A DNA stretch of 64,000 nt from Capitulum mitella (lineage: Eukaryota; Arthropoda; Thecostraca; Pollicipedomorpha; Pollicipedidae), in NCBI GenBank assembly GCA_030062745.1, contig CP099852.1:21908266-21972265 (forward strand). The letters are read 5' to 3'. The notes beneath the pieces were generated by a model that was not told the origin of the DNA, did no database searches, and worked only from the letters and a program-made list of their open reading frames with translations. Shown here piece by piece: positions 8,939 to 54,400 of this stretch (positions are counted from its first letter, which is position 1; every line of letters begins with the position of its first letter). The translations under genes and the position numbers were made by a program.

Positions 8939-11900
8939 ATGGAGCTGGCACGGGAAGGTGTCAGTATGTTCCTGAACAACCGCCTGGTGGAGGCTGAAGA
9001 GCTCTTCCATCACCACCTGGAAAACCGACATGTCCGAATGGCACATTGCTTCACCACTGTAATGGTTAGTATCAGATGCTGACATTTACTGCTGAGAATT
9101 ATAAATGGCATGGTGTTTTACTGCTTTTATCCCAGTAACTCAGCATCTCTTGATTTCAGAAAGTTGTAGCCAGAAGGAAGCTGCAGTTTGTTGCATGATG
9201 GATTGGTATGTTCCTTTTTCCCTATGGATCTGTTTTGTGTGCTGGTATGAGTCTAGTAACACAGATAACTGGTTGTCAGGTGATTATGCAGGATGTCATC
9301 AGCTGGGCTGTTTTTTTTGGCAGAATGCTGTGGTGACATTTGACTCCATCCAACTGGAACAAACTCAGCAGTTACTCAAGGCCACAGAGAAAGCTGTGGC
9401 TCCAGACTCTGGACTAGTCACTCAGCTCAGAGCCAAACTGAAGGGCTCAGATCAGCTGCAGGTATTTCTGAGATCAGCTGTACTCTGTTCCAAAGGTGCT
9501 GCTGTATCTTCCCATACATTGTGCCCCTTATCAGCTGGATGGTCATCCCATAAATGCCCTCTCTTAGTTGACAAAAGCTATCACCTCTCCCCTTTTTGAT
9601 CACATTTTGTGTCCAGCAACTTATGATGTATTTGTTTTGTAATGCATAATGCAGAATAATGGATGAAGGCTTTGACTTCCAGCACATTCTTGAATTCTGC
9701 ATGGTTTCTATTCTGTTTTATGCAGTCATACTGCTAGTTTCTCACACTTTCGTCCTTATTTGCCCATATGTGAGCCAGGTGTGTTTTCATTATGAAGAAC
9801 CTGGCATTTGTTATATGCTGGTACACACCCTCAGATATGTCCCAGAAAGCTGGTCATCTCAGTCACCAGCATGTACGAACACACCACCCTGTCAGGGACT
9901 GATTCCCTGTAGCCTGATGTTGACCGGGGCGTCGCGGCGTCCTCCTGCGTCGGAAAATGACCTCTGCCGTCTTCAGCAGTCGGCCGCAGGCGCTGACCGG
10001 CCGTGACCGTTTTGGCAGGAGGACGAGGTCGTGGACCTGCTGGAGCGCCAGATCGTGGTGGCCGACTGCCAGGTCTGCTCGGCCGTCATCAACTTCCTGC
10101 AGCAGGTCCGTCCGCCCGACCCGGACGCCTCGGTGCACCGGACCGGTCGTCGGCGGTGTTGGTCTGTCGGGACCCGGAGGCTCTGCACTTTATCCATGGG
10201 GTCCTGGGCCTGAGCAGTCCTGGCCTGCTCCCTGTCATCCGTGATATTGTTCGCGTGAGACCACGAAGGCCAATAAACTCCGGTTTCTGCCCCACTTATT
10301 TCAACATTACCGTGAAGTGACCGTTTTGAAACGGAAGGCTGTTCCGCGCCGAAGTATCTGAAGGTTTCTCTCTCCCGTTAGCCGCACGGTCGCCGGTCCT
10401 GAAGCATCCCAGCAGCCCTAATTTTGATGTATGTAATGAATGTGAGTCGACCGCCCGCTGACCCTGCTCCGGCCTTCAGGACCTCAGCAGCTGCGTCAAG
10501 GGCAGCTGGGGCCTGCGGCGCGCCTGGAAGACCTACGACAGGATCTACGGCCAGATCAGCTCCATGTACCGCAGCCTGCAGCAGGACGGACTGGGGGACG
10601 GTGAGAACCCCTCCCAGCGGCCGGAGCTGGCTGGCGTCGGCCGGGATCTCGCTCCCGTGATCTCACTCCCGCAGAACGTGCCGGGAACTGGAGGTGGAGG
10701 CTCGAGAATGACAGAAACGTTTTCTCGTAACCGAAGCTGCCACCGATGCCATTCTGTTGGCTTATGATCTCACGGATATCGGTACAAGTGCCCCCTGCCG
10801 TCACACGACAATAAACCCATTCGTTGGTTGGCTTTTCCCACGTTGTATTTTTATATAAGTTGGTGCTGTGAAGCGAAGGCCTTTGTCTGACGCATTGGAG
10901 GATGCGGCATTGCCGTTCTTCGTACTGTCCGTGGAAGAATACTCACGCCCTTGTTCGGTCTGCCTGCCTGCCTGACCGTGTGTCGCCGCTGCTCACTGCG
11001 TCGCTCTCATTACAAGCGGCCGAGCCGGGTGGCTGTCCTCCCCAGGCGCCGGCCCGTCCTCTACTGTCCTCCTCCTCGTCCTCCCCGAGCTTGGCCTCCT
11101 TCGCGCCCGCCGCCGCCACCGGCGCCGGCGTTCCCCGCTCCGCCACCCGGCTCCGTGTGGACCAGACCAGGTGAGTGTCGGACCGGCTCCGTGTGGACCA
11201 GACCAGGTGAGTGTCGGACCGGCTCCGTGTGGACCAGACCAGGTGAGTGTCGGACCGGCTCCGTGTGGACCAGACCAGGTGAGTGTCGGACCGGCTCCGT
11301 GTGGACCAGACCAGGTGAGTGTCGGACCGGCTCCGTGTGGACCAGACCAGGTGAGTGTCGGACCGGCTCCGTGTGGACCAGACCAGGTGAGTGTCGGACC
11401 GGCTCCGTGTGGACCAGACCAGGTGAGTGTCGGACCGGCTCCGTGTGGACCAGACCAGGTGAGTGTCGGACCGGCTCCGTGTGGACCAGACCAGGTGAGT
11501 GTCGGACCGGCTCCGTGTGGACCAGACCAGGTGAGTGTCGGACCGGCTCCGTGTGGACCAGACCAGGTGAGTGTCGGACCGGCTCCGTGTGGACCAGACC
11601 AGGTGAGTGTCGGACCGGCTCCGTGTGGACCAGACCAGGTGAGTGTCGGACCGGCTCCGTGTGGACCAGACCAGGTGAGTGTCGGACCGGCTCCGTGTGG
11701 ACCAGACCAGGTGAGTGTCGGACCGGCTCCGTGTGGACCAGACCAGGTGAGTGTCGAGTGGACCAGGTGAGTGTCGGACCGGCCCTGTGGACCAGACCAG
11801 GTGAGTGTCGGACCGGCTCCGTGTGGACCAGACCAGGTGAGTGTCGGACCGGCTCCGTGTGGACCAGACCAGGTGAGTGTCGGACCGGCTCCGTGTGGAC

Positions 11901-14900
11901 CAGACCAGGTGAGTGTCGGACCGGCTCCGTGTGGACCAGACCAGGTGAGTGTCGGACCGGCTCCGTGTGGACCAGACCAGGTGAGTGTCGGACCGGCTCC
12001 GTGTGGACCAGACCAGGTGAGTGTCGGACCGGCTCCGTGTGGACCAGACCAGGTGAGTGTCGGACCGGCTCCGTGTGGACCAGACCAGGTGAGTGTCGGA
12101 CCGGCTCCGTGTGGACCAGACCAGGTGAGTGTCGGACGGGCTCCGTGTGGACCAGACCAGGTGAGTGTCGGACCGGCTCCGTGTGGACCAGACCAGGTGA
12201 GTGTCGGACCGGCTCGGCTGAGCTGGTGAGCGACGGCTGAAGTGTGGTGGGGAGACGACCCTGCCTGTGCACGCTACCTGAACGCCGTGCGTGAGGTTTG
12301 CCCAGACTTCCCCATGAGGACCACTACGTTCGAGTGGGGTTCCAGACGTGCTGTTGACTGTAAAAGGTGCGACTCGTCAGCTTTACGTCGTTCCTCACAA
12401 GTCTTGAGGGGCGTCTCCGTCACCGCCGGGCGGCTCGTCAGTTTGTCCGTCTGTCTGTCTGTTGCAGCCCCGTCTCGGCGGCGGTCGTGCGCGCCCTGAT
12501 GGGCTCGGTATCCCTGGGGTACGGCCTGTTCCAGCTGGCCGTCTCTCTGCTGCCGGCCAAGTTCGTCAAGGTGAACCTCGAGCCGCCACGGTGGCGTACT
12601 GTGCCTGCAGTGTTGTGCTGTGATGGACCGTTCATTGTGCCAAGCGTCGGGTTTCTGATATGTATGAGCATTCGGAGAGGAACATTTCAGAGATTTGATG
12701 CGTGGTTTTTCATTGAAGAGTAGGATTAAGTTAAAACAGTTATCCTCATTAAGACAAAGATCTTGTTACGTCAGCGAGCCTTTGCATGCCTGTCTTTATT
12801 GATTTCTGCCTATACATTGCTGATTATCGAAGCGAGGAGTTGACCAAGTGCTATGCAGAAGAGGTGGTCAGAATTGCATGTGGATCAGTTACGTAGGGTT
12901 GAAAATGGGTAGCTTTGGTGCCCCAATAGCATGACTGCAGTCCTAGAACACTTACCTGTGTTTTTATGTTCATGAAAGTTACAGAACATGACGAAACTAC
13001 CTGCTTTCCGCCAGAATGCGTGGTTAAATTTGAACATTCGTTCTGCTTGATGTATGAAATGGGCTTTAAGAAAGCCCAGTCTGATCTAATCGAAAGGGGC
13101 ATTTGACCTTTGCTACGACTCTGAACAGGTGGTTCAGCTGCTTGGTTTCCAAAGTGACCGCTCGGCGGCGCTGTCGGCGCTGACGTTCTGCAAGAACAGC
13201 CAAGACATGCGGGCTCCACTTGCCAGGTACGCTTCCAGTGGTAGCATGGGCTGCCTGTTGGACAGTTCACTTCTCTTCATTTTCTGTTCGCGTTGTGTTA
13301 AAATCCTGTCCGTCAGTGAGGCTTGGGGGTGGGGGCTGTCATCGCAGCACTAGCGCTTTTCTCGCCGGATAGCAGTCTTTCTCTCTGAGCTGTCTGCCCC
13401 GTTGCAGCCTGGCGTTGCTCTGGTACCACTTGGTGGTGCGCCCGCTGCTGTCGCTAGATGGCAGGAGTGTCGCTGGACGGCAGCTGAGGTGTCTGCCCCC
13501 GTTACAGCCTGGTGCTGCTCTGGTACCACTCGGTGGTGCGTCCGCTGCTCTCGCTAGATGGCAGGAGTGTCGCTGGACGGCAGCTGAGATGGTGTCTGCC
13601 CGCGTTACAGCCTGGCGCTGCTCTGGTACCACTCGGTGGTGCGTCCGCTGCTCTCGCTAGATGGCAGGAGTGTCGCTGGACGGCAGCTGAGACGTTCTGC
13701 CCCCGTTACAGCCTGGCGTTGCTCTGGTACCACTCGGTGGTGCGCCCGCTGCTCTCGCTAGATGGCAGGAGTGTCGCTGGACGGCAGCTGAGGTGTCTGC
13801 CCCCGTTACAGCCTGGCGCTGCTCTGGTACCACTCGGTGGTGCGCCCGCTGCTCTCGCTAGATGGCAGGAGTGTCGCTGGACGGCAGCTGAGGTGTCTGC
13901 CCCCGTTACAGCCTGGCGCTGCTCTGGTACCACTCGGTGGTGCGTCCGCTGCTCTCGCTAGATGGCAGGAGTGTCGCTGGACGGCAGCTGAGGTGTCTGC
14001 CCCCGTTACAGCCTGGCGCTGCTCTGGTACCACTCGGTGGTGCGTCCGCTGCTCTCGCTAGATGGCAGGAGTGTCGCTGGACGGCAGCTGAGACGTCTGT
14101 CCTGTTACAGCCTGGCGCTGCTCTGGTACCACTCGGTGGTGCGCCCGCTGCTCTCGCTAGATGGCAGGAGTGTCGCTGGACGGCAGCTGAGACGTCTGTC
14201 CTGTTACAGCCTGGCGCTGCTCTGGTACCACTCGGTGGTGCGTCCGCTGCTCTCGCTAGATGGCAGGAGTGTCGCTGGACGGCAGCTGAGGCGTCTGTCC
14301 CCCGTTACAGCCTGGCGCTGCTCTGGTACCACTCGGTGGTGCGCCCGCTGCTCTCTAGAGTTCGCTGGACGGCAGCTGAGACGTCTTCCTGTTACAGCCT
14401 GGCGCTGCTCTGGTACCACTCGGTGGTGCGCCCGCTGCTCTCGCTAGATGGCAGGAGTGTCGCTGGACGGCAGCTGAGACGTCTGTCCTGTTACAGCCTG
14501 GCGCTGCTCTGGTACCACTCGGTGGTGCGCCCGCTGCTCTCGCTAGATGGCAGGAGTGTCGCTGGACGGCAGCTGAGGTGTCTGCCCCCGTTACAGCCTG
14601 GCGCTGCTCTGGTACCACTCGGTGGTGCGCCCGCTGCTCTCGCTAGATGGCAGGAGTGTCGCTGGACGGCAGCTGAGGTGTCTGCCCCCGTTACAGCCTG
14701 GCGCTGCTCTGGTACCACTCGGTGGTGCGTCCGCTGCTCTCGCTAGATGGCAGGAGTGTCGCTGGACGGCAGCTGAGGTGTCTGCCCCCGTTACAGCCTG
14801 GCGCTGCTCTGGTACCACTCGGTGGTGCGTCCGCTGCTCTCGCTAGATGGCAGGAGTGTCGCTGGACGGCAGCTGAGGTGTCTGCCCCCGTTACAGCCTG

Positions 14901-17900
14901 GCGCTGCTCTGGTACCACTCGGTGGTGCGTCCGCTGCTCTCGCTAGATGGCAGGAGTGTCGCTGGACGGCAGCTGAGGTGTCTGCCCCCGTTACAGCCTG
15001 GCGCTGCTCTGGTACCACTCGGTGGTGCGTCCGCTGCTCTCGCTAGATGGCAGGAGTGTCGCTGGACGGCAGCTGAGACGTCTGTCCCCGTTACAGCCTG
15101 GCGCTGCTCTGGTACCACTCGGTGGTGCGTCCGCTGCTCTCGCTAGATGGCAGGAGTGTCGCTGGACGGCAGCTGAGGCGTCTGTCCCCCGTTACAGCCT
15201 GGCGCTGCTCTGGTACCACTCGGTGGTGCGTCCGCTGCTCTCGCTAGATGGCAGGAGTGTCGCTGGACGGCAGCTGAGACGTCTGTCCTGTTACAGCCTG
15301 GCGCTGCTCTGGTACCACTCGGTGGTGCGTCCGCTGCTCTCGCTAGATGGCAGGAGTGTCGCTGGACGGCAGCTGAGGTGTCTGCCCCCGTTACAGCCTG
15401 GCGCTGCTCTGGTACCACTCGGTGGTGCGCCCGCTGCTCCCGCTAGATGGCAGGAGTGTCGCTGGACGGCAGCTGAGGTGTCTGTCCTGTTACAGCCTGG
15501 CGCTGCTCTGGTACCACTCGGTGGTGCGCCCGCTGCTCTCGCTAGATGGCAGGAGTGTCGCTGGACGGCAGCTGAGACGTCTGTCCCCGTTACAGTCTGG
15601 CGCTGCTCTGGTACCACTCGGTGGTGCGTCCGCTGCTCTCGCTAGATGGCAGGAGTGTCGCTGGACGGCAGCTGAGGTGTCTGCCCCCGTTACAGCCTGG
15701 CGCTGCTCTGGTACCACTCGGTGGTGCGTCCGCTGCTCTCGCTAGATGGCAGGAGTGTCGCTGGACGGCAGCTGAGGCGTCTGCCCCCGTTACAGCCTGG
15801 CGCTGCTCTGGTACCACTCGGTGGTGCGCCCGCTGCTCTCGCTAGATGGCAGGAACGTGGCAGGCTGGCGTGGCCGCCTCGCAGCAGCTGCTGGAGGAGA
15901 CGGCGGACCGGTACCAGCAGGCGGCGCTGTTCCAGTTCTTCCGCGGCCGCGTGCTGCGGCTTCAGGTCAGACCTGCGGCGTGACGTCACCAGCCGTTGGG
16001 ACAGGCCTGGGTACATAATGATTTCCGTTCCAAGGACAGAACCGGCCTGGATAAATGCCGTCCTCCGGCATAGGGACGTGCCTGAGTAGGCTAGTTGATA
16101 CATGTCACAGGGACAGGGCAAAGCTAGGAAATGACGTCACCTGCTTCTGGAACGGGTTGGCCTAGGTGGATACCGGAACCGGCCTGGCATTCGTAAGTGG
16201 TCCGGTATAAGTAAAGCCATTGCTGGTAGTCGCTGATTGTTTCCCTGTTGGTATGGTTTCTGACGCCGCAGTGTGTTCTGCTCGTTCGTCACGACTTGGT
16301 TAGCTGTGAGTATGAGTCTGACATCACCGTGAGTCTAAAACGGCGTTCCTCTGAAACCAAAACACGGCAGTTTGTTCGTCGCTGTTTCAGGCGGACCTGG
16401 AGGGCGCGGTGGCCGCGTACGAGCTGGCGGCCGGCCAGGGCCAGCAGTCGGAGGTGCGGCTCCTCTGCCTGCACGAGATCGGTGAGCCCCACTGCGGCGG
16501 CGTCTGGTGACGTCTTCAAGGCGAAACCTGTCGCGGGAAGTTTTTCGATGTCGCCCGGAGGAGTTACAACGTGCAGTGATGTTTAATTCCCGTAAGTTCA
16601 TATCATCCGATGAACGTTGCTCCGCTGTCATGAAGATACTCGTAGTCTCGTTCAGCGGAAGAACGACTGTAAAGTCATTCGATCGTGCGCTGCGGAGGCG
16701 CCGTGCCGACGGTCGGCAGGTAGCCTGAGACATCGGCGGCAGGCCGGTGTCGACTGGCCGTGGACCGGCGGACCGACCCGAGCCGGCCGCCTTCGTCAGG
16801 GCAGCGGGCTAGCGTTGGCTACCGACCGGATCACGGACTAACGTGCGCTGTCCGGGCGGTAGGCTGGAATCACCTGGCCGCGGATCTAACGCGCTCTGCG
16901 GGCGGCAGGCTGGTGCCGGCTGCTGAAGCTCGACTGGGTCGGCGCGTTCGTGGCGTTCTCGGAGCTGGCGCAGCAGTCGCGCTGGTCCAAGCCGTTCTAC
17001 CACTACCTGGCGGCCGGTGAGTGGCCGCGGACGGGGCCGGCCGGCGGTGCCGCCTCGCTCGCCCTGGGGTCCGGCCCCCGGCACTGGTTCCAGCCGGCCG
17101 GCAGCTCAGCTCTGCCGGACTGAAGGCAGCTCAGCTCTGTCGCGGGTCCGGCGTATCAGCCGTTAGCAAAAACAGTTTGTGCTGATTGCGTACAAACTAC
17201 AAACAGCTTCGGTCTGTCTGCTGTTGTGTGCTGATCGTCTGAGACAACCTTTGTCTGTTGTATGTTGTGTGTGAACAGTTTGCTGACCCTGTGTTACAAA
17301 TCTGCAGGCAGTCTGCCGTCCGTCTTGTGTGGACAGCGTACTGACCATTTGGGCCACCAGTTGCGCATGTGGTCAGTCTGTTGTCAGTGTGTTATCATGT
17401 GTGGACAGTGTATGCTGACTGCAACATATCGACATTGTGTGTGTGTGTGTTGTCTGTCATGTGTGGCCAATGTACGGGTACCACTACATATGCGCAGCCT
17501 GCCTGCCGTCCGTCACGTCTGGACTGCGCGCGCTGACCGGCCGCCGCCTGCCGTCAGTCTGCGCCGGCGCCTCCGGTGACGTCACGCTGTGCTCGTCGCT
17601 GCTGGCCGAGATCTCGCCGCCGGGCCGCGGTCGGCCCGACCTGGACGCGTTCATCCAGCGGCGCGCGGCGGCGTGCTGCGGGAGCCGGCCGCGCCGCCGC
17701 GCGCGCAGCTCTCGTGCCGCCTGCACGGCTACGAGCTGCTCTACCTGTGGAACGCGCTGCCCTCGTGCCCGCCCGAGGCGTGGCGCGCCATCGTCGACGG
17801 TGAGGAGGCGGCCGCCGGCCGGTGGAGGGCGGACGGATGACGGCGTCCGGTGTGAGGACGATCGCTGGTCTGTCGTGGTCTGTGGCGTGGTCGTGGTCTG

Positions 17901-19729
17901 CGGCGAGTACGGCCCGTGGTCTGTTTTGAGGATTGCGGCTGAGCCGTCAGCGCCCTCTGGTGGGGACGGTGGCAGAGCACTCACTGATATGCCGTGAGCA
18001 CTGTCACCGCTTTGTTGTCGGGACGGTTGTGGACCCATTACTGGTCTGTTGTGAGGCGGCAGGGAAGCCGCCACCGCTCTGTGGTGTGAAGATGGTAATG
18101 GCTCCGTCACTGGTCTTTTGTGGTGTTGACGTGGGAGCCGCCACTGCTCTGTTGTAAGGACGGTGGTGTGTTGTGAGGACTGTGATGACCCTGTCACTGG
18201 TCTGTTGTAAGGACGGTGCTGGGCCCGTCACTGATCTGTTGTAAGGACGGTGGCGGATCTGTCACTGGTCGGTTGTGAGGGCGACAGTTGAGCCGTCACT
18301 GGTCTTTTGCGAGAACGACAGTGTAGTCGTCACTGGTCTGCTGTGGCAGTGGTGGAACCGTCCGCTGATGTCCTCTGAGGACGGTGGTGGGGGTCCGTCA
18401 CTGGTTTATTGTGAGGACTGCAGTTAAACCCTTCACCGGTCCGCTGTGACAGCTGCAGTGGAGCCGTCACGGCTCCGTTTCGAGGAGACCAGTGGATCCA
18501 CCTCCGCTCTTTCCTGAGGACGCCAGCCGACCGGTGACCGCGCGGCCGTGCCCGCAGACTGCCAGCAGGCGGCGACCGAGCTGGCGCCGCTGGCCGCCGT
18601 GGCGCACCTGGTCTGCGGCGGCGTGTTCGACAACACCAGCCTGGCCGAGGCCGAGCGGCACTACCGGCGCGCCCTGCAGCTCGGCGCCGGCGACCGCGCG
18701 CGGCCGCACGTGGCGCCGCACGCCAGCTACGAGCTGGCGGTCATGTACTGCGGCAATGTCCGGGTACGTGGCAGGCGCGGTGGCGCAGGCGTCGTTGCCG
18801 GGTCGGCTCGCCTCCTGCGGCGTACAGGAGGGCTGTGACTGGCGATGGAGGGTTTGTTTGTTTTCCGTTAGTTTTTGTGGGCTTCTGTTGCATTCATACA
18901 GCTTTGATGCGTTCTTTTTGCTTTGTTGTGGTGTTGCACTTTTCCCAGTCGTCAATGTTCGTACTGGTTCCAGCGTTCTCGTATTTCATGTTCGTTCAGA
19001 CATGCTGGGAGGCATCCGCTTTCCGACGTTCCCCAGTAAGCGCTCTGTTGGGTGTCATGCGTAGTCGGGCTCCTTGTCCTGGTTCCGCAGTTTCTGGAAA
19101 ATCTACGCTCTGACCCCCCACCCATCTGATCTCCATAGTCAGTCACGGCAGCATTGCTTAACGCACGCCACGTCGGTGTGACTCGCCGGCGGCCGGGATT
19201 GGCACATATCTCCGGTAATCTTGGTCGTCAGTTCCCACCAGCGAGCGCCGAGTCTTCAGGTTGACCGCTGTCCGCCGGCCGATGGCCTCGCCTCGGGCCG
19301 GCTCCTGGGCTGTTGTCTGCCGTGTGATCGCCGGCTGCCGTGTGACGCCGCCTGTCCGTCCCTGTACAGCTGTCTGCCGTGTGATCGCCGGCCGCCGTGT
19401 GACGCCGCCTATCCGTCCCTGTACAGCTGTCTGCCGTGTGATCGCCGCCTGTCCGTCCCAGTACAGCTGTTTGCCGTGTGATCGCCGCCTGTCCGTCCCT
19501 GTACAGCTGTCTGCCGTGTGACGCCGCCTGTCCGTCCCTGTACAGCTGTCTGCCGTGTGATCGCCGGCTTCCTGTCCGTCCCGGCAGCGCCGCGCCGAGG
19601 GCCGCGCCCTGCTCGAGTCGGCCCGCGACGACTACAGGGACTACGACTTCGAGTCCAGACTCAGCGTGCGCATCCAGCAGGCGCTCAAGCGGCTCGAGAA
19701 GCTCGACCAAGGAGGAGAAGGACAACTAG
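8939..19729 (+). CDS. TTC39C: Tetratricopeptide repeat protein 39C-like (TTC39/IML2 family), 13 coding exons
   Basis: Exons are 8939-9064, 9324-9461, 10019-10105, 10480-10600, 11017-11170, 12468-12570, 13129-13226, 15796-15965, 16391-16481, 16909-17016, 17558-17799, 18558-18763 and 19588-19729. All have GT-AG junctions with matching phases. The product is about 594 residues, close to vertebrate TTC39C. Recognisable family words are MFLNNRLVEAEELF, QIVVADCQVCSAVINFL, LALLWYHSVVRPLLSLDG, LFQFFRGRVLRLQ, ELLYLWNALPS and YDFESRLSVRIQQAL. Role: a TPR scaffold; vertebrate TTC39C is reported to matter for cilia, while yeast Iml2 relates to lipid-droplet/inclusion biology. The start at 8939 has purine at -3 and G at +4, but an upstream exon is possible. 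Frame breaks of one base occur near 15865, 17675 and 19708; without the last, the frame would run to 19953. Junction-spanning arrays lie in three introns. The first coding exons are CpG-poor and later ones CpG-rich. Confidence 0.85.
9037..9924. other. CpG-depleted 5' body of TTC39C
   Basis: No CpG was read from 9037 to 9750, including the whole coding exon at 9324-9461, and only two between 9751 and 9924. From 9925 the sequence becomes CpG-dense within a few bases. The coding sequence is continuous across this step, so it is a compositional boundary inside one gene. Confidence 0.65.
11148..12216 (+). repeat. 36-bp minisatellite built on the TTC39C exon 5 donor site
   Basis: The unit joins the last 22 or so bases of the exon (…GTGGACCAGACCAG) to the first 14 of the intron (GTGAGTGTCGGACC). 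GTGAGT occurs 30 times, at 11171 and then every 36 bp. There is one irregular stretch at 11747-11801, with 20-bp and 34-bp steps. Copies are almost identical, implying recent expansion. Splicing from the first donor gives the phase that matches the next exon at 12468. Any later donor would retain AGG TGA in frame, a stop directly after the first unit. Two other frames and one minus frame stay open through the array only because 36 is a multiple of three. Confidence 0.97.
13390..15850 (+). repeat. About 100-bp tandem array built on the TTC39C exon 8 acceptor site
   Basis: The word GGTACCAC recurs 25 times, about every 100 bp, from 13424 to 15808. Each unit carries a pyrimidine-bearing acceptor (CCCGTTACAG or GTCCTGTTACAG; GTTGCAG in the first) followed by the exon start that encodes LALLWYHSVVRPLLSLDG. 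A diverged short echo, GTGTCGCTGGACGGCAG, follows. Units are nearly identical, with some variants of 98-102 bp and one shorter, near 14350. The exon before ends in phase 2, and every copy starts with the matching single base. Only the last acceptor, at 15796, is contiguous with the rest of the exon. Confidence 0.97.
17190..17557 (+). repeat. Degenerate tandem repeat in TTC39C intron before exon 11
   Basis: Imperfect copies of a word like GTCTGCCGTCCGT…TGTGGACAGTG…CTGACC repeat up to the acceptor CTGCCGTCAG| at 17557. The first bases of the exon (TCTGCG) resemble the repeated TCTGCAGG/TCTGTTG words. The array is older and more diverged than the others in this gene. Confidence 0.5.
17990..18475 (+). 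repeat. Degenerate minisatellite in TTC39C intron 11
   Basis: About ten diverged copies of a 40-55 bp unit with the core GTCACTGGTCTGTTGTGAGGACGGTGG. It ends shortly before the acceptor of the exon at 18558. There is no coding. Confidence 0.7.
19310..19587 (+). repeat. Six-copy acceptor array in the last TTC39C intron
   Basis: Copies of 39-59 bp start near CTGTCTGCCGTGTGATCGCC and end in a strong acceptor-like sequence, TCCGTCCCTGTACAG. Five copies carry that upstream acceptor; the sixth ends in the authentic CCGTCCCGGCAG| joined to the last coding exon at 19588. Each copy therefore has its own pyrimidine tract and AG. Confidence 0.85.
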
Positions 19730-27517: not shown

Positions 27518-28189
27518 TCTGGCTGTAAAACATTCCAGATCGGTGTCACACAGCCGATCTCTCTCTCTCTCCCTTTCTCTTTTGTTTTATCGTTTTTTGT
27601 TTTTGACAACGCTTTAAGATAACTGTGACAGTCTTCCAAATTTTCGATGATGTTATCCCAAAATCAACACTACGTTAATGGCTTTCCGTCGTCATATAGT
27701 TCACGGACATTAAATACGAACGCCAAACGCTAATCGCAACGTACGTGACACAGTACGTAAAATATTGCAGTGATCAAGGGTAGTGCATGAAATACCTGTA
27801 CATGATTCAGCATTTTGATGGAAATGTGAGACGAGATGATTTTTGTCAAAGTTAGCGGAACTATCAAAGTTATCACGCTATCACGTACGCCGTAATGCTG
27901 TATCAATGTATGTTCAGTTTGTCCGACGAGAACCAGGGCCAGGTTTTAGCCTTTCCATAAATGCAACCGGATACCCCAAACCCCTCTAAACACGCATCCC
28001 TTCCGTCAGATTAGGACCGCTGACCGCCCCCAAACGTTCATGGTGACCATCGACGGGGCGCGCGCCTGCTCGGCGGTTGAGCTGGCGAACACCTGACAGA
28101 TGGCCTCACCAGGTGACGGCGGCCGTCGGCTGGCGCTCGAACACCGACGGCGCACGGACAACGTGGCCGTCACGACCGTCATCGCGTCC
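27518..28189. other. Upstream region of rolling-stone-like gene
   Basis: AT-richer sequence upstream of the rolling-stone-like ATG, with a (CT)n-like stretch near 27561. It probably contains the promoter. No defined element was recognised. Confidence 0.35.
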
Positions 28190-35060: not shown

Positions 35061-35204
35061 CGGTCGCGTGCTGGGTCAGCGGCGGCCGGCTCTGGCTCCA
35101 GTCGTGTTTGGAACGAAAAAGCCGGCGGCGGTCAGTCCGTGCAACTCGCTCGTCCAGTCCGCACCGCCCTCCGCTGCGTCTCCCGAGTCGGACGGCACCG
35201 TTAC

Positions 35205-35375
35205 AGCAGGTCAGTGCACAGACCGGCAGGTCAGGCAGCACCGCTATACACCAGGTCAGTGTACCGGCCGGCAGGTCAGGTAATACCGCTATACACTGGG
35301 TCAGCATACAGTCCTGCAAGTAAGTAGCACCGCTGTACACCAGGTCACTGAGCAGTCTGACAGGTCAAAGAACAA
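35205..35375 (+). repeat. Minisatellite, period about 47 bp, with donor-like CAGGTCAGT in each unit
   Basis: Four increasingly diverged copies contain CAGGTCAGTG, GGCAGGTCAGG and ACCGCTATACAC. An open, Ser/Pro/Ala-rich frame ends at the first CAG|GTCAGT (about 35211), resembling the exon-plus-donor arrays elsewhere in the window. An exon here is only a possibility. Confidence 0.6.
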
Positions 35376-39800: not shown

Positions 39801-40517
39801 TCGCCTTGCTTAAAAGAGATGATGGAATTCTGTGCATGCGCAAGGCAGGTGGCGTGATTCTTAAGTTTGGAAGAAACCTTCACGTTTTTTTGTTATTTTA
39901 AAGTAGGACCAAAAGATGCGACGTTGAGTTGTCTTAACGTCAGACAAAATCTGTTGCAATTATTTCTGCCACTTGACCCGTATGACTAACCTGGAAAACC
40001 GTGGGCACCTCCCCTCAGTAGTAACGGGCTGAAATTTAGCGTTCCTCTGTTTCCTCGTTTCCATCTTTCCTTTGCCCGCTTTCCGAGGCAGCGCTGGCAT
40101 TGCCCACGCCAGCGAGCGTCCTCAGGACTTCGGGAGGTTGGCTGCGATAAGCCTTTACCGAAAGCATCTCATTGTAGGAAGCACGATACATCGGGCTGAC
40201 AGGCATTTTGAGGATGTTGCTGAAGAGGCATTATGGTCAGTTGTCGGCTCCATCCGCTTTTTGGTCTGACGTCATCTACCCACAAGAATTCGGGGAACAG
40301 GTCTGTTGTGCAGTGCAGTGCAGCTAGTGCGGCCACAGAGGCAGTTTTTTGTGGAAAAACTCAGATGTGACCAGGGCTGGCGATCCCGGGGATGGGGTTA
40401 CGGATCTCCAATGTTCAGGGATTTTAACATTAGGCCAATGGTAATGACTGAAAAAGAAACGGTATGAAAATCCTATATGAATCCCTCCCAAATATAAAAA
40501 TGCACTGACTCCCCACA

Positions 40518-40599
<82 letters not shown>

Positions 40600-43500: not shown

Positions 43501-46500
43501 ACCTTTACAGATAATATTGAATGCACACGACATCATTCCAGGTGATCCCAAGGTCACTGGAGGTCATTTAAGGTCAAAGGTCACAAGTTGATCTGAAGAA
43601 CGTTTGACCATGACAGTTCCCCCTTTTTTATGTCCCTGGCACCGCCTATGCTAACATTATACAAACATTGTAATGCGATTTGTACTTCTTTAGCATAACA
43701 TGACTAGCAGAAGCTAAAAAAGTGTTTTGGCTTCTTTTGTTCATTCCGTTATTAGAAAACTAATCCCCCTATTTTTGAAACCCTGTGAACGCCCATGAAT
43801 TTTCTCAAAATTTCAAATTTGCATATGCATGGTAAAAGCCCTATTGATAATCTCTCGATTCATGCCAGTTTCATCGAAATCGGTCCATAAACAACGGAGT
43901 TATAAGAAGTCAAAAAGTACCCCCCATTTTGACATTTTTGCCCCCCTGTATCCACAAGTTTAAAAATTTTGAAAATTTCTTTTTATAAAAATGTAGTTCA
44001 CGTCACGGCGAATCGATTGCCGTTTGTTGCGATGAAATCGGATGAGTAATTCTCGAGATCTCAGGGGGGGGGCCGAATCCGCCCCCCCCCCCTGCCGGGA
44101 ATCGGCCATACCGTCTAGCCCTCCGGGAATAGGGTTAAAACGTCAATTTGTTCTCACGACGCAACGTACCATAAATTTAACAGCCCGGATCTGAACAAGG
44201 TGAACTATATCGGAACCTGTATATCTATGGAACTATGGAAATATATCGGAATCTGTGCGAACTGCCACAACAGTCAGCTGAACCCAAAACGACCTTGTCT
44301 CTTGTCTGTGGCGGGCGATTTTTACTAGGCTAGTGCTGAGCGGCATGTTTTTCTGTGGCGACCGCGTCGGTACCGAGGCTGTGTTTACAATGTGACGTGT
44401 TTTCCCTGCTAGCACAGTCTGCCTACTGGCCCCAGCCTCCGACGGATCATCCTGCGTGAAGATCCTCGGAACCTCAGCGCACAATCACGTGCCATTATTA
44501 TGCTGCTCTCCTTAAAGCGAAACACTTTGTAACGAAGGCTCAGCGACAGCCGGCGAAAAAAAATGTGTTAGTGGTGATTTTAGCTGACCTTAGGGCCGTT
44601 TTAGGCATACGCTGTGAAACAGTCGGGCATTTCTGTGCGTGGTTGGTACGGAAAACACGCACATGTTTGACGCGTTTTCCTTTTCACATGACGTTGTCAC
44701 GTAGTAACAGGCTTCGAAACAGAAAAAGGCGATGTTCTTGGAAGTTGATAAAGGAACGAGGGTTTATATTAAAAAAAAGTTTCAAAAAATGTTGATGATG
44801 TAACAGTTAAGGCCAGGCCAGGCAACTGCCAAGTTCAGGCATCAATGGATGCGATTTTCTTTATCACGTCCATTAATTTCCGCAAAACCTTGGACCAGGC
44901 AATGTTCGTTCCTTGTCAAGACCACAAAAGTTCATAAGTATACAAAATTTTTACAGAGGTTCGTTTTCAATCCAACGCGTCCTCAAAGCAAGGAAAAGAA
45001 AATGTTACGGAGATCTACCGTGAAAACGGGCGGCTAGTCCCGGAAAACACTGAAAAGACGTCACACCAAAATGTAAAGGAGGTTAAAAGTCACTTCATTT
45101 TCACGATTTTCCTTGATCAAGGCTGATTTTCGGGCCATGCGGCCGCCATCTTTAAATTGGCACTCCACAGAAACACCAGCAGTGAAGATGCTTTTCTATG
45201 AACTCCAAGTTTCTAGTCCTGGACTTCGCGATGAAATCACAGAGTTGGCTACGGAGAAAGAAAAAACAACCTTAGAGTCCTGTCTGTCCTTTTTAGAGAG
45301 AAACAACTTCAGAGTCCTGTCACTGCCAGTCATTGTTGGAGACTTCGAAAAATATTCAGGAGTCGAAATGGGGTTTCAGGTTTTTCCTTCTAGTCATCGT
45401 TATAGGCCTAATTGCGAGCGAGGCCGAAGGCCGAGTCTTTCTTCAACCAACGGAAAAAAGCAGATTGAGCGATCTGGCCCGGCCAGCCTAGTGACAACCA
45501 TTTCCGGATGCCAATAACTCCGCAACCACTGGGCACCGTAACATGAAATTGCTACCAGAAGATAGCTCAATTCTTTGCATTCTACGTGGTTCCAGTTATA
45601 ATGCGTCAACTTGCAATCTCTGTCTATCACATAACCATACCGGGTGAAACGCTTTTACTCTTATACCTGGTTTTTCACATGTGTTTGAACAGTTGTATTT
45701 TGGTATGTCGAAGGAGAGCGTGACGTTTAAACTTGTGATTTTTCGGATGCATAATACTGGAATAGATCGATAAACGTCTGTTTTCTGCTGCAACCTGCAT
45801 AAAGAGAAAGGAACGATACAAGCAACAACGAAGTGGGCCTTGCTCGTCATGCTCCCCACAAGGCATCTTAATGTCGCTAAAAATTTTGGACAATGGGGGT
45901 TTAACGCAGCTCCCCTGAGACAGAAATGAAAATTTTGCGTCCTCCCGGGATTGTGAGATAACTGGGTTATCGGCCGTCTCAGACGTCATGATTACCATTG
46001 CGTCGGCTGAAAAAGTGGTGAAGTGTGGCTGAGCTGGTTGGTCTGTCGACGTCCGCACCTTCCCGACACTGGAACCTCCTCCTCCGGCAGTTCGTGGGCG
46101 TGTGGTACGTGACCCAGCATTTTGACCCGGAGGCCTCCTGCCTGCGGTTCAACGTGACCACGTGCGGCGCCGGCTGCCTGCGCCTGCAGGAGCACAAGCA
46201 GATCAACCTCTTCAGCAGCATCGGCGTCTCGAACGTGTACCAGAGCCAGGCGCGCCTGCAGGTCACCGGCTCGGACCTGGCCTGCATGGAGTCCACGTCC
46301 ACCGACAGTGAGTGCGCTTCTCGCCGTGCTGGACTTCTCAGGTTCACCAATAGTTATCCTCCGAATGGAACGTTTTAAAATCCTTTGGGGTTTGCTCATA
46401 CGTTATGTGGGGAATTCTGAATCATTGTGGGCGCCCACTCAGTAGGGTCCCTTGTTACACTCTGAATATATAAGATATGTGGGGTACCCAGTGAACATGG

Positions 46501-48869
46501 CAGAAAATGCATCCATGGTTGTTACCGCCGGAGAGGAGTTTTACGTCGGCCGCAAAAGGTCGGTGTTTGTGTGGGTTTAACCGGTCTTGGTTATATTTGT
46601 CGATGGAGGTGGGACCCGGACTTGCTTCCCAATGACTCCTGTACTGGGAAGAGGAAGACCGGGTACCTTCCCCGGCCGCTCTTTTTCGTCCACCACTGCT
46701 GCTAAGACTTGTCGCGAGTCGACTGGGCTCGACGAGGCTCAGGGAGTGATTCTCGGTTCTGCTGAATCTGCGGTTGGCGCTGGGTTTGAGCGGAGCTCCC
46801 GGAGGTCCGAGCCCGGGACTGCCCGACTTTGGGAAGCTGGGGGCAGGCACATAGCCAGGATTGTCCTCGGGGAAGGGGCAAATGTTAAATTTGGTCATAT
46901 GGCGTAGGCATATGACGAAATTTGCAGGAGAAATTAGCAATTTTATGTACCTCACCTCATATTTAACTCACAAGAACACATAAAGTGTTTGCTTTTGCGA
47001 CATGTCTATGATCATTTTTCCGTATTCCTGCGAAATATCTGCTACTATATCTAGCGAAGACCGCTTGGCTCAGGGGGGCCATGGCCCCATGCCCCCCCCC
47101 CTTGGCTACGTCCCTGGCTGGGGTGCCGGCTCAGCTAAGCCGAGCAGTATAGGCCACCCGGTGGGGGCCCCGGCGCGCCGTCTGCGGTCTCTCTCCGGGC
47201 GCGGGCAGCTGTGGTCGGCGACTCGCCGGCCGCCGCCGCCGCCTGGGGTCCGCCCGACAGCGGGCCGGCACTGAGACGACGCCCCCTGTTGGTGGCCTCT
47301 GGGTTCAGGTGTGGCCGGAACGTTCGGCCGACCTGCCCGTCAGCGGGTACGGGGTACGCAGCGGGAGGACACAGTTGTAGGGCGGGCCCGACGCCCTATC
47401 AGTCACCGCACGGCACCCGCGATAGGCGAAACAGCCTGGCGGAGATACCCTGAGGAGTGAGGAGACGTCAGTTGACAGAAGTTTCATATGGGGACTGGGG
47501 ACGCCACCTGAAAGATGACGTCTCGGTGAGTCCGGCAGCAGACAGCAGGTGCTCCTTTAAACGTGCCAGCCGACTTTGTCAGTGTCAGATGCCACATTAT
47601 GGTGCCTGTGATGTGAGACCTGGTGCAGCGGACACAGTTTGGTGCCTGTTGATGCAAGACCTGACACGCCTGACGTAGCTTTGCACCGGTTCACGAATGA
47701 CCTGACACAACTGACACGGCGCAGTGACTGTCGGTGTGTGACCTGACACGACTGACAGATCCCTGCGCCGCAGACCCGCGACCGGCCACCTACGCCGTGC
47801 TGGCCACCGACTACGAGTCGTTCGCGGCCCTTTTCACGTGCCAGAACGTCAGCGTGGGCCCTCTCTCGCTCTACCACCGGCGGGACGTTTACCTGCTGAG
47901 CCGCCACAGGAACCTCACCATCGCCCCCGAACACCAGGACCAGGTGAGTGTCTCTGTGTACCTGCTGAACCGCCGCAAGAACCTTACCATCCCCCCCGAG
48001 GACCTGGACTAGGTGAGTGTCTGTGTGTACTTGCTGAGCCACCCCAAGAGCCTCACCATCTCCCCCGAATACCTGGACAACATTAGCGTCTGTATGGACG
48101 GCACCTGCTCCCCTGTGCAGGTGGATCAGGTGAGTGGCTCGGTGTCCGTCCGTCGCCTAATGTTTGTCACTAATGTTTGTCAGTGCCTGAAACCAGTGGC
48201 TGTTCTTTATGCCCCAGTATCGCGTCCACGCATCACTGGGCCCAATCGTTCGCTGCCGTGTAAGTTGCTGTCCTGACAACCAGCCCGTGACCACGTGAAC
48301 TCTGACCCTGATGACCTTGCCGGCCGCCGTGACCCCGAAATGACACTGCAGGTGGCCGCTGCGCTGATCGTCAACCAGATCGAAGACGAGTTGGAGCCGG
48401 TCACCCACTCGAGCTGCATCTCCGCCAGCCAGGCCTTCCTGGACTTGAACACCAACCGGCTGGTGAAGGGGGTAAGAACTGTGACTGTCCGCCGCCCGGC
48501 GGGCCGGACTGATCGCATTGTGGGACGTCTTTCCGACCTAGACTTACTGGTTGCGAATGTCGAGCCGGCACAGAGCAACGCCTGGGGAGGCCTGGGGAGG
48601 CCTCGGGAGGCTCGCGAGTTACTGGATCGCGTACCCCGGCGCCGTTTTTCCTCTGCCAAAGATGCGTATCGTTCGCTTCAGCTTCGTGTCCTCCGCGTGC
48701 ACGCGAGGAGTCTGCGGAGCTGCTTTCTGGCCTTTCGCGCCGGTCTTGTCGCAGCCTTGTGACTGGTTCCCCGTTCTGTCGCCAGGTGGCGGACGTGGCC
48801 AACAGCATCACCAGCACGATCAACTCCATCACGGCCACCATCAGCGGCCTCTTCTCCCGGTCCAACTAG
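36891..48869 (+). CDS. Secreted lipocalin, apolipoprotein D-like, five coding exons
   Basis: Exons are 36891-37016, 46091-46307, 47774-47943, 48352-48471 and 48786-48869, all with GT-AG junctions and matching phases. The product is 238 residues. Residues 1-20 are a signal peptide (ILCCLFALVVAAAA). The lipocalin fold follows: motif 1 is the GxW in FVGVWYV (residues 43-49), motif 2 is TDY in VLATDYESFA, and ACPR near residue 27 is typical of arthropod ApoD/Lazarillo-like proteins. The third motif (Arg) is not clear. Such proteins bind small hydrophobic ligands outside the cell; the ligand here is unknown. The C-terminus is longer than usual and ends in a Ser/Thr/Ile-rich segment (SITSTINSITATISG) on its own exon. 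The exon 3 donor region is triplicated. Intron 1 is 9 kb. Confidence 0.8.
38157..38975 (+). CDS. Hypothetical 272-aa open frame inside lipocalin intron 1
   Basis: An 819-bp frame from ATG 38157, with no tandem repeats to explain it. The predicted protein is Arg/Ser/Gly-rich with no recognised domain, signal peptide or membrane span. GC-rich sequence keeps frames open by chance, and there is no splicing or family support, so this is probably not a gene. Confidence 0.15.
   Translation: MTSQHSGDGGGPGSGESTSANRGQFLPSIVGDILFSCRRRCPNGVTKTDFKRGTADGPRGRYFTTRAASREEACSISQDGLDCMRLGHHFPITVADPPRCLETLKRIPRRNPVAFYFHLSAASLGEGSGSVRELVRGWLRPTTSRRNRSSPLLSRGGGHRPESVTSGGHPVTSIRSCEPEPWTRCRPGADRRLRLRSREGPSGFRVRDVRGSHSQLGSDQRMIMLEPRRILGGRCWLWQTRRKLNEMLRVLLLHLTSGSWIADQCSQIFRSV
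39308..39478 (-). mobile_element. Short inverted-repeat element, family CATGGCTGG, copy E (reverse, diverged)
   Basis: It aligns by eye with the reverse complement of the copy at 4283: shared words include GTCCAGACCCCCCAGTTTT, CGATTTTAACA, ACAGTGACTGGAAA and GGAAATCTCCAG. The ends are diverged. Confidence 0.45.
40372..40500 (-). mobile_element. Short inverted-repeat element, family CATGGCTGG, copy D (reverse, interrupted)
   Basis: It aligns with the reverse complement of the copy at 54000: GGCTGGCGATCCCGGGG, TTCAGGGATTTTAAC, AAACGGTATGAAAATCCTA and AATCCCTCCC. An (AT)n tract follows on its right side, so the far end is disrupted. Confidence 0.45.
40520..40599. repeat. (AT)n microsatellite
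   Basis: About 75 bases of uninterrupted TA dinucleotides followed by ACATATG, in lipocalin intron 1. Frames reading IYIYIY here are repeat products. Confidence 0.95.
42925..44134. mobile_element. piggyBac-type non-autonomous element (MITE), 1,210 bp
   Basis: TTAA at 42921-42924 and 44135-44138 flank perfect 12-bp inverted ends, CCCTATTCCCGG. TTAA targeting and CCC-starting ends are the piggyBac signature. Inside, both sides carry CAGGGGG…CGGAATCCGCCCCC-like palindromic stretches. The right side has about 25 extra bases and a second ATTCCCGG before it. There is no transposase frame. At least six AGGTCA half-sites lie at 43247-43583, including a perfect DR1 at 43571-43583. It sits in lipocalin intron 1. 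Confidence 0.8.
44139..46090. other. Right part of lipocalin intron 1
   Basis: No gene recognised. The 134-aa frame at 45113-45517 has no family features and no splice support. Confidence 0.35.
47590..47772 (+). repeat. Degenerate repeat at the 3' end of lipocalin intron 2
   Basis: Diverged copies of a word like GTGACCTGACACGACTGACA approach the acceptor GCGCCGCAG| at 47773. Too degenerate to set a period. Confidence 0.5.
47890..48097 (+). repeat. 69-bp triplication spanning the lipocalin exon 3 donor
   Basis: Units start at 47890, 47959 and 48028. Each encodes a YLLxxxxxLTIxPE-like segment, then GACCAG|GTGAGTGT or its derivative. The first is the real exon end (donor at 47944). The second keeps GTGAGT at 48012 but has TAG in frame just before it. 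The third has lost its donor (ACATTAGC). The copies are about 80% alike, so this array is older than those in TTC39C. Confidence 0.9.
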
Positions 48870-51130: not shown

Positions 51131-51407
51131 CTCCGCCCGCGGATGCTTGGCACCAATGAAGGACATGGTCCAACAGACAGCGCGCACACCGGCCGTACCA
51201 CATGAACCGTCCGCACTCCAGACGGACACCAGCGTCCTGCCCACCTCCGACCTCGCGACGCCGCATTTTCTCGCGGTGGATCTGCGTTCAGGCGGCCGGC
51301 TGGTCCTCCGGCGTCCACAGCGCCGCGAGGGGGGCTCCTCCCCGGCCGCCGCCGCCTCCTGCGGGCAGCCCGGCCGGCCGGCGGGGGCCGCGCCGGCGGC
51401 GGCCGCC

Positions 51408-54400
51408 TCAGGCCGGCGCCGCCAGCCGCTCCATGCCCCAGCTGAGGTAGTCGGCGCGCGTGGCCGCCAGGTACTCGTCCACCAGCGACTGGACCACCTC
51501 GCGCGAGTTGTCCAGCTCCTCCAGGCTCTCCGAGAACATCTCCTGCTTGCGGAACTGCTCCAGGAAGGCCTCGCGTTTGCGCAGTTTGTCGTACTGCTGC
51601 AGGGTGCGCGTGAACAGGGACGAGATGCTGGTGTGGTTGGCCAGCATCAGGCCGGACACTCGGTGCGCCGACTGGATGTAGGGCGACTTCCGGGAGAGCG
51701 CCACCTGGATGCTGGCCGGCCCCCAGGGGATGAACTGGGCCAGCTTCCGTTCGCGGATCCTCTGCAGCGACTTGTGCACCTGTCAGACCGCAGCACGGTG
51801 TCAGGGGGTGGTGTACTTGTGCACCTGTCAGACCGCAGCACGGTGTCAGGGGGTGGTGTACTTGTGCACCTGTCAGACCGCAGCACGGTGTCAGGGGGTG
51901 GTGTACTTGTGCACCTGTCAGACCGCAGCACGGTGTCAGGGGGGTGTACTTGTGCACCTGTCAGACCGCAGCACGGTGTCAGGGGGGGGGGGGTGTACTT
52001 GTGCACCTGTCAGACCGCAGCACGGTGTCAGGGGGTGGTGTACTTGTGCACCTGTCAGACCGCAGCACGGTGTCAGGGGGTGGTGTACTTGTGCACCTGT
52101 CAGACCGCAGCACGGTGTCAGGGGGTGGTGTACTTGTGCACCTGTCAGACCGCAGCACGGTGTCAGGGGGTGTACTTGTGCACCTGTCAGACCACAGCAC
52201 GGTGTCAGGGGGGGGGTGTACTTGTGCACCTGTCAGACCGCAGCACGGTGTCAGGGGGGGGTGTACTTGTGCACCTGCAGCCGCAGCACGGTGTCAGGGG
52301 GTGGTGTACTTGTGCACCTGTCAGACCGCAGCACGGTGTCAGGGGGGTGTACTTGTGCACCTGCCAGGCACGGTGTCAGGGGTGGTGTACTTGTGCACCT
52401 GTCAGACCGCAGCACGGTGTCAGGGGGTGGTGTACTTGTGCACCTGTCAGACCGCAGCACGGTGTCAGGGGGGGGGGGTGTACTTGTGCACCTGTCAGAC
52501 CGCAGCACGGTGTCAGGGGGTGGTGTACTTGTGCACCTGTCAGACCGCAGCACGGTGTCAGGGGGGGGGGGGGGTACTTGTGCACCTGTCAGACCGCAGC
52601 ACGGTGTCGGGGGGGGGGTACTTGTGCACCTGTCAGACCGCAGCACGGTGTCAGGGGGTGGTGTACTTGTGCACCTGTCAGACCGCAGCACGGTGTCAGG
52701 GGGTGGTGTACTTGTGCACCTGTCAGACCGCAGCACGGTGTCAGGGGGTGGTGTACTTGTGCACCTGTCAGACCGCAACACGGTGTCAGGGGGTGGTGTT
52801 ACGCCCAACGACGTCAGATCCAAGGAGAGGTTGCTGCAGGCAGTCAGGGGCGGCAGGGCTGGTGGCCTGTATACGTCACTACACAGTGGAGAATTTTTTC
52901 CTTTTTATTCAACTCATATTCATGTCTGAACTTTAATCCAGGTATGGCGATCCGGAATCATTTTCCCATGGCAAATCCCATCATGAGGACATCTGGACGT
53001 TCGGCAGATTACCGGAGCAGCTACTCCACTCTATAGTGATGTTTTCGACAACACGATTACATAGAGACGATCACCAGTTACAGTACGCGATCCAGATTAT
53101 TACACTTCGCCGATACCGGAGACGCACTTCCAAAGCGTGCAAAGCTAAAACTGCTTATCAACTTGGATAATGGCTCTTAGATACTCCTGGTTTTTAGACA
53201 ATGTACACATTCAATAAATAAACGACCTTCCCTACCATGACTGGGGTTGATTTACACAATTCAGTCTCGTAGTGTACCGAAGGTCGTTTATTTTTTGAAT
53301 GTACACAAAACTGTTTGTTTCCCTGTGCGATTCGGGGAGGGATCAACACACGGACTTCCGAGGCCGTCCGAGAACAGAAGGGCTGGTGCCACTGACCTGC
53401 GTGGGGTCCACCTCGCCCTGGATGATGTTCAGGATGGCAATGTAGCAGTGCGCCATGCTCTTCTCGGCCGACGTGCTGACCATCATGTTCTTGGGCTGCA
53501 GCAGGCGGCGCATCACGTCCAGCACGGTCGTCTTCCGCACCGACGTCCCCGCCTGGCGGCACGTGGTGGTGCGTGACGGCGCGTGGTGGCACGTACCCGC
53601 TCGCGGGGTTCGCAGACATTAACCATGTGTGTCGTTCAGGAACGGCGTCGGCGGCGTCTCCACCGAGGCGCTACGACTGGCGGTCTCCGCAACAACGTAA
53701 CACTGACGCGACAGAGAGGCTGACGCTATGGTTTTATGCTCGTTCTTTGGGACCTGGATGTGCTGGCCAGAGATGGGCGACTCGGTACGCGGCTCAGCCG
53801 GTGGCAATGTCACTACGAATATCTCTGGACATCATAAACGGGAGACACAAACGCTCTGCACGGGTAAAAAAGTTTAACTTTGTCCGGCTTCAGCGCGCAA
53901 GCACTGCAGCTTCACGGCATCCTTACTAAGTACGCTGCACGCTTGCAAAGGTAAAATTATATGTCGTCTGCACTGAATATATTTGATACAACCGGTAATC
54001 ATGGCCAGGGATTTCCGAGAATTACTGGGCATGGGGTCCACATAGGATTCCAGACCGTTTTTTCAAGTCCCTGTCGCAGGCGTAAAATTAAGATCCCTGA
54101 ATATGGGGCCGGTGCCATAATATAATGCCGGTGCCATAATATAATCCCTCCCCCCCCCGGGATAGCCAGTCATGCCAGGAACGCCTTTCAGCCTGAGTTG
54201 GTGGCGAGCCTCCTGGATCCGGTGCGGCGGCGGTCTCGCTGATCTAGTGTTCCCGTCAAAACGCCAAACCGCGACACCCTTCCGCCGAAACACGCCAGAC
54301 TTCAGCCGGCGCGTCTGACCGCGCCCGTCCGCGGGAGCGCCGCGCTCAGGGCGGCCGCACTGACCTGGTCCGTGGTGAGCGGCGTGTAGCCGGTCATCAG

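What the first reader, a model, noticed from the sequence alone, without database searches (positions are those of the whole stretch)
11148..52800. Tandem arrays built from splice junctions in four unrelated genes
In at least six places the tandem unit straddles an exon-intron edge and copies the splice site: TTC39C donor (36 bp x30), TTC39C acceptor (100 bp x25), TTC39C last acceptor (x6), rolling-stone-like acceptors (62 bp x3; about 90 bp x2-3), lipocalin donor (69 bp x3) and gamma-tubulin acceptor (45 bp x23). They occur on both strands with unrelated unit sequences. Polarity is constant: the extra copies extend into the intron, and the exon-adjacent site is the only one that preserves the protein. 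Ordinary minisatellites should not prefer junctions. Possible causes are duplication seeded at AG|GT, arrested tandem-duplication intron gain, or selection for tolerated decoys. Copy purity ranges from near-identical to about 80%, suggesting continued turnover. I know of no described system of this kind, but cannot search the literature.
Basis: partly seen in the sequence, partly recalled or inferred. Interest (0 to 1): 0.87.

Follow-up and report, generated by a model that had tools for sequence, protein, structure and literature searches.

The report
Splice-junction minisatellites ("mirages") in a barnacle
In one stretch of a barnacle genome, short tandem repeats copy the edges between exons and introns, a pattern already described in amphioxus genes under the name "mirages" and not found reported in an arthropod in the searches made here.

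Summary
Five tandem arrays straddle a coding splice junction in four unrelated genes: TTC39C donor (30 sites), TTC39C acceptor (25), rolling-stone acceptor (3), lipocalin donor (3 copies, 2 with GT) and gamma-tubulin acceptor (23). A sixth (rolling-stone, 82 bp, diverged) appears only with relaxed settings. The array at the last TTC39C acceptor ends 19 bp short of it and copies mainly intron.

The source is a barnacle. [quoted passage not shown] Ten searches showed no mirage report outside cephalochordates; human boundary repeats and a potato intron gain are related.

Junction preference is only suggestive. By base coverage there is none (5 of 53 junctions against 6.9 expected). With arrays collapsed to single events, 5 of 17 loci straddle against 0.7-1.3 expected (P 0.0006-0.008). 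GC matching gives 5 of 16 against 1.9 (P 0.02). It is one window, picked after the fact.

Most likely mechanism: chance short duplications spanning a junction are tolerated because splicing at the exon-adjacent site leaves the mRNA unchanged, then expand as ordinary minisatellites. The constant polarity follows from that and is not extra evidence.

The parts
11147..12215 (+). TTC39C donor mirage: 36-bp unit (24 nt exon end + 12 nt intron start), 30 CAG|GTGAGTGTC sites; authentic donor after base 11170
   Evidence: TRF; 30 sites, spacings 36 (27 times), 34 and 20; donor edge by Amphibalanus TTC39C P0001; 30 of 30 decoys, the diverged 31st site included, give an in-frame stop
13385..15854 (+). 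TTC39C acceptor mirage: 100-bp unit (about 40 nt intron end + 60 nt exon start), 25 acceptor sites; authentic acceptor before base 15796
   Evidence: TRF; 25 sites, spacings 87-103, and unit alignment; exon LALLWYHSVVRPLLSLDG in P0001; 23 of 24 decoys give a stop
19314..19569 (+). 40/57-bp array ending 19 bp before the last TTC39C acceptor (19588); units carry the intron 3' end with TACAG, little exon sequence
   Evidence: TRF; alignment, z 6.8
24939..25109 (-). Rolling-stone-like acceptor mirage: 62-bp unit (37 nt intron + 25 nt exon), 3 copies (the other two 97% and 77% identical to the exon-adjacent one); authentic acceptor at 24963
   Evidence: TRF; copies; junction within HRVPRRPLHV shared with P0080
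25745..25905 (-). Diverged 82-bp duplication at the preceding rolling-stone acceptor (25784)
   Evidence: Relaxed TRF; gapped alignment (z 8.8); not in default TRF
47890..48078 (+). Lipocalin donor mirage: 69-bp unit (54 nt exon + 15 nt intron), 3 copies (86% and 78% identical to the exon copy); authentic donor after base 47943
   Evidence: TRF; copies; decoy at 48012 gives an in-frame stop
51770..52799 (-). Gamma-tubulin acceptor mirage: 45-bp unit (35 nt intron + 10 nt exon GTGCACAAGT), 23 acceptor sites; authentic acceptor at 51779
   Evidence: TRF; 23 sites; DPTQ|VHKSLQ against gamma-1 tubulin; 21 of 22 decoys give a stop
8930..19727 (+). TTC39C gene
   Evidence: 70% identity over 98% of the query to Amphibalanus amphitrite TTC39C-like (the query left out the poorly conserved exon 11017-11170)
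24660..27522 (-). Rolling-stone-like gene
   Evidence: Pfam Rost 6.5e-14; 66% identity over 271 residues to P0080 of A. amphitrite
36892..48869 (+). Lipocalin-like gene, five exons
   Evidence: Pfam Triabin 8e-5; apolipoprotein D 3e-6; no hit in the large protein search
51415..55205 (-). Gamma-tubulin gene, three coding exons
   Evidence: PDB match to tubulin gamma-1 chain, E 8e-265

Best explanation
These are mirages: minisatellites whose founding tandem duplication happened to span a splice junction. Inferred steps: (1) replication slippage or microhomology-mediated duplication copies a 36-100 bp piece containing an exon edge and its splice site, in a minisatellite-rich stretch of GC-rich DNA; (2) the change is nearly neutral because the spliceosome keeps using the copy attached to the intact exon, so the extra copies stay inside the intron; (3) unequal exchange and slippage expand and homogenise the array, as in any minisatellite. 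Shown here: the arrays, their registration on the junctions, near-identity of many copies, and that by prediction nearly every decoy tested in four of the five arrays would add a stop. Not shown: which sites are used in RNA, and any active junction preference.
For: Five default-TRF arrays contain a junction anchored by homology (four) or by reading frame and a weak family match (lipocalin). The units of the five arrays have unrelated sequences, so no shared mobile element is needed. At the donor array the flank after the last full unit repeats the first 7 bp of the unit, CCGGCTC, as slippage or microhomology would leave; this was examined for that array only. In the donor array 25 of the 30 other copies are identical to the exon copy. 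The intron-distal copy is the most diverged in 4 of 5 arrays, though two of these have only three copies. Twelve of 17 minisatellite loci in the window do not touch a junction, so junctions are not required. Amphioxus mirages are reported not to disturb normal splicing by RT-PCR (PMC3087553).
Against: Collapsed-locus tests give more straddling arrays than random placement: about 7-fold with free placement of 17 loci, 1.9- to 3.1-fold after GC matching over 15 TRF settings. Pure chance does not explain this comfortably. The five straddling arrays are all among the seven with TRF score of 250 or more, and none of the ten weaker ones straddles. Identity of copies does not fall significantly with distance from the exon in the three long arrays (Spearman P 0.08, 0.33, 0.94), so a model in which the exon continually seeds fresh copies has no support.
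Confidence: 0.7

Rival explanations
1. Splice junctions are mutational hotspots for tandem duplication in this lineage, for example through co-transcriptional R-loops or short direct repeats around AG|GT, so junction arrays arise more often than other minisatellites.
For: 5 of 17 loci straddle against 0.69-1.33 expected, P 0.0006-0.008; circular shift of the junction set P 0.0007 for 5 of 16 loci; amphioxus shows the same in several genes.
Against: By base coverage 5 of 53 junctions against 6.9 expected, and no real excess at any of five thresholds. GC matching lowers the excess to 5 of 16 against 1.9, P 0.023; across 15 parameter rows the GC-matched P ranges from 0.0005 to 0.055. Mid-intron windows show tandem copies at least as often as junction windows: 16 of 75 against 8 of 52. 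The window was chosen because it looked odd.
Confidence: 0.15
2. Arrested or ongoing intron gain by tandem duplication (Rogers model): arrays are intermediates that will create new exons or introns.
For: A duplication crossing an intron-exon boundary yielded a new intron in potato RdRp (PMC4974935); a mirage-based intron-gain model was proposed for amphioxus globins (PMC3087553).
Against: The arrays sit at introns of the gene models, and nearly all decoys tested add in-frame stops. No new intron was seen, but intron positions were not compared with other barnacles.
Confidence: 0.05
3. Selected decoy arrays that regulate splicing or intron retention.
For: The donor and the two long acceptor arrays keep their splice motif at regular spacing, with no gap of two units (30, 25 and 23 sites), so local sequence hardly distinguishes real from decoy.
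Against: Near-identity is explained by recent homogenisation. The lipocalin third copy lacks GT. No DNA from other barnacles was available to test conservation.
Confidence: 0.05
4. Assembly artefact.
For: The assembly seems to carry small indel errors: frameshifts in TTC39C near 15866 and 17665 and in rolling stone near 27390. The amphioxus BflGb6 mirage appears wrongly assembled in the draft genome (PMC3087553), and PGBD5 copy numbers differ between two amphioxus versions (PMC3902484).
Against: Single-base indels do not create junction-registered units; copies differ by substitutions shared among subsets; the PGBD5 repeats were confirmed by re-examined and new sequence data (PMC3902484). Copy numbers here may still be wrong.
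Confidence: 0.05

Closest known systems
Amphioxus mirages (Adh3, TnC, globins BflGb6 and BflGb9, PGBD5)
   Same: Minisatellite-like tandem copies spanning donor or acceptor boundaries; units 81-100% identical in BflGb6; many but not all keep AG/GT; edge units escape homogenisation (PMC3087553 and PMC3902484, passages; the Adh3 and TnC papers were not seen)
   Different: Here in an arthropod; up to 30 copies, more than in the passages read; five to six cases in four neighbouring genes; no RNA evidence here
Variable internal tandem repeats at human exon-intron boundaries (PMC2812944, passages)
   Same: Minisatellite units of about 30 bp on average, some at exon-intron boundaries
   Different: Human cases lie in segmental duplications and can change splicing or form introns; no such change is shown here
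Intron gain by tandem duplication (potato RdRp PMC4974935, passages; Rogers AGGT model as cited there)
   Same: Duplication crosses an intron-exon boundary and copies splice signals
   Different: There a new intron results; here no new intron is seen, an intron only holds extra copies

Membership tests
Mirages | Tandem repeat unit spans an exon-intron boundary | tested here: met
   Five arrays by default TRF, the 25784 duplication with relaxed TRF; the array at the last TTC39C acceptor does not straddle
Mirages | Both 5' and 3' boundaries can be affected | tested here: met
   Two donors, three acceptors among the five
Mirages | Unit length in the reported range | tested here: met
   36, 45, 62, 69 and 100 bp; reported 10-72 bp (Adh3), 150-160 bp (globins), 60 and 108 bp (PGBD5)
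Mirages | Many, not all, copies keep AG/GT | tested here: met
   30, 25 and 23 sites at regular spacing in the long arrays; lipocalin third copy lacks GT
Mirages | Homogenised interior with diverged edge copies | tested here: inconclusive
   Distal copy most diverged in 4 of 5 arrays, two of them with three copies only; no significant gradient
Mirages | Normal mRNA splicing at the exon-adjacent site | not testable with these tools
   No RNA data; only predicted outcomes
Mirages | Length polymorphism or somatic instability | not testable with these tools
   One assembled sequence
Intron gain by tandem duplication | A new intron at the duplicated segment | not tested
   No genomic DNA of another barnacle was reachable; none seen in the gene models

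The most novel reading that the evidence does not exclude
Splice junctions are genuine hotspots of tandem duplication in two very distant animal groups (cephalochordates and barnacles), so that a general, possibly co-transcriptional, process continually lengthens introns by copying exon edges, and the spliceosome reliably picks the exon-attached site among up to 30 near-identical ones.
Probability: 0.13. Interest if true: 0.85.

Novelty: new member of a known kind. Interest (0 to 1): 0.5.

Why it matters
It takes mirages, documented in the papers I found only in amphioxus, to an arthropod, which suggests they may be a general by-product of minisatellite-rich genomes. The two TTC39C arrays are also natural experiments: 30 donors or 25 acceptors with nearly the same local sequence, of which by prediction only the exon-adjacent one keeps the protein, so site choice would have to depend on position or exon definition. 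That makes a question of splice-site competition directly testable by RNA sequencing of one gene.

Tried and rejected
The base-coverage test gave no real excess at any of its five thresholds and is reported as such; its control is inflated by the long arrays, which is why collapsed tests were added. Comparing junction windows with mid-intron windows, 8 of 52 junction windows and 16 of 75 mid-intron windows had z of 5 or more; 9 of those 16 lie in introns holding a junction array and 7 do not, and one of the 8 junction windows (donor 26519) matches a short repeat inside the intron rather than a copy of the junction. Relaxed TRF settings list up to 13 straddling loci of 113; six of the twelve listed at periods of 20 or more are short, weak arrays that I do not count as mirages. 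A gradient of copy identity with distance from the exon was looked for and is not significant. One search left out the exon-adjacent copy of the donor array and used the next one as reference, and its microhomology line used a wrong offset; one search repeats both correctly. One search tested one TTC39C acceptor decoy at a base that is not a site (15597); one search replaces it. A test whether non-junction units hold strong splice motifs was uninformative, since the random controls included array copies. The lipocalin homologue search found nothing at E 0.001 among 5301 candidates. Ten paper searches listed no mirage report outside amphioxus. Three barnacle genome papers were checked by term search only.
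Full report
Source. The window has no name, but TTC39C is 70% identical over 98% of the query to the Amphibalanus amphitrite protein and 67-79% to two Pollicipes pollicipes proteins. The neighbouring rolling-stone gene is 66% identical to an A. amphitrite protein over 271 residues, and both A. amphitrite proteins are listed with a longest contig of 423007 bases, which suggests conserved order. Arrays of TAACC at 57272-57565 fit the arthropod telomere motif (motif recalled). It is a barnacle of undetermined species, not amphioxus.

Gene models. I placed 54 coding splice junctions in six genes: KLHL-like (BTB), TTC39C, rolling stone, lipocalin-like, gamma-tubulin and RING1-like (53, plus the acceptor at 11017 found; family matches for four of them). 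The gamma-tubulin junction is exact against gamma-1 tubulin. The TTC39C exon before the donor array ends in SATRLRVDQT and continues SPVSA, as A. amphitrite RRSATRLHVDQARPVSAEA does. The lipocalin label rests on Pfam Triabin 8e-5 and apolipoprotein D 3e-6; no homologue was found in the large protein search.

Arrays. Five arrays contain a junction: TTC39C donor, TTC39C acceptor, rolling-stone acceptor, lipocalin donor and gamma-tubulin acceptor. The 36-bp donor array has 30 CAG|GTGAGTGTC sites and the 100-bp acceptor array 25 acceptors, with no spacing near two units, so no inner unit has lost its site. A second rolling-stone acceptor has a diverged 82-bp duplication. The array at the last TTC39C acceptor stops 19 bp short and copies mainly the intron end. 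The TTC39C acceptor at 16909 shows a weaker upstream copy with only five exon bases (z 4.6; alignment).

Consequences of decoys. By translation, using a later TTC39C donor adds an in-frame stop in 30 of 30 cases, an upstream gamma-tubulin acceptor in 21 of 22, an upstream TTC39C acceptor in 23 of 24, the remaining one adding 100 nt; the next lipocalin donor adds a stop too. The rolling-stone decoys were not tested. The TTC39C exon after the acceptor array has a +1 frameshift against its homologues in this assembly, so its normal product cannot be read through either. Polarity, with extra copies always on the intron side, follows from keeping the exon intact and does not by itself point to a mechanism.

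Chance. By bases, 5 of 53 junctions lie in duplicated DNA against 6.9 expected, with no real excess at four other thresholds. This control is inflated by the long arrays. With each array collapsed to one unit, 5 of 17 loci straddle a junction against 0.69 expected under free placement, and 1.33 when placement is restricted to gene bodies and not wholly inside exons (P 0.0006 and 0.008). On a window collapsed to two copies per array, with 4000 control positions, 5 of 53 junctions reach a gapped self-match score of 24, 26 or 30 against 1.6, 1.2 and 0.8 expected (P 0.02, 0.008, 0.001); at 18, 20 and 22 it is 9, 6 and 5 against 4.6, 3.1 and 2.2 (P 0.04, 0.09, 0.07). With the default TRF setting and periods of 20 or more, 5 of 16 loci straddle against 0.83 expected, or 1.90 after GC matching (P 0.023); over 15 parameter rows the GC-matched P ranges from 0.0005 to 0.055. 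Mid-intron windows hold tandem copies at least as often as junction windows (16 of 75 and 8 of 52). The excess is suggestive, from one window noticed because it looked odd. The junction arrays are also among the strongest: 5 of 7 with TRF score 250 or more, 0 of 10 below.

Turnover. In the donor array 25 of 30 other copies equal the exon copy. The intron-distal copy is the most diverged in 4 of 5 arrays, but identity does not fall significantly with distance in the three long arrays.

Literature. [quoted passage not shown] PGBD5 of amphioxus has 60- and 108-bp versions supported by re-examined and new sequence data (PMC3902484, passages). Human minisatellites at exon-intron boundaries (PMC2812944, passages) and a potato intron gained by a duplication across an intron-exon boundary (PMC4974935, passages) are related. 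I found no report of mirages in arthropods in ten searches of open-licence papers; most subscription papers are not in that library.

Verdict. A new occurrence of a known kind in a new phylum, with copy numbers larger than those in the passages I read and several cases in one neighbourhood. The most likely origin is chance junction-spanning duplication, tolerated by splicing and expanded as ordinary minisatellites. A true junction hotspot remains possible and is easy to test genome-wide.

Noticed in passing
window about 15866, 17665 and 27390: Small frameshifts relative to Amphibalanus homologues in TTC39C (two) and rolling stone (one), probably assembly indels; a decaying gene copy is not excluded
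   Followed up: partly
window 57272-57565: Two interstitial arrays of the TAACC (TTAGG) telomere-type repeat, each preceded by the same short AT-rich sequence
   Followed up: no
window 35195-35368: 45-bp array upstream of the lipocalin gene whose unit holds CAGGTCAGT, possibly a further mirage at an unannotated 5' UTR exon; the motif test was not significant (donor p 0.066)
   Followed up: partly
window 50188-51131: Large 17-bp minisatellite between the convergent lipocalin and gamma-tubulin genes, not at a known junction
   Followed up: no
window 16482-18557: Neighbouring TTC39C introns hold diverged tandem copies: a weak one at acceptor 16909 (z 4.6) and a mid-intron array in 17800-18557 (z 7 to 12) that does not reach its acceptor (z 1.3); acceptor 17558 has z 1.5 though relaxed TRF lists 17531-17628 across it
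   Followed up: partly
window 6001-10000 and 56001-62000: AT-richer blocks (GC 0.37-0.45 per 2 kb) hold the first exons of TTC39C and the RING1-like gene, while their later exons have GC-richer surroundings (most of them 0.62 or more)
   Followed up: no
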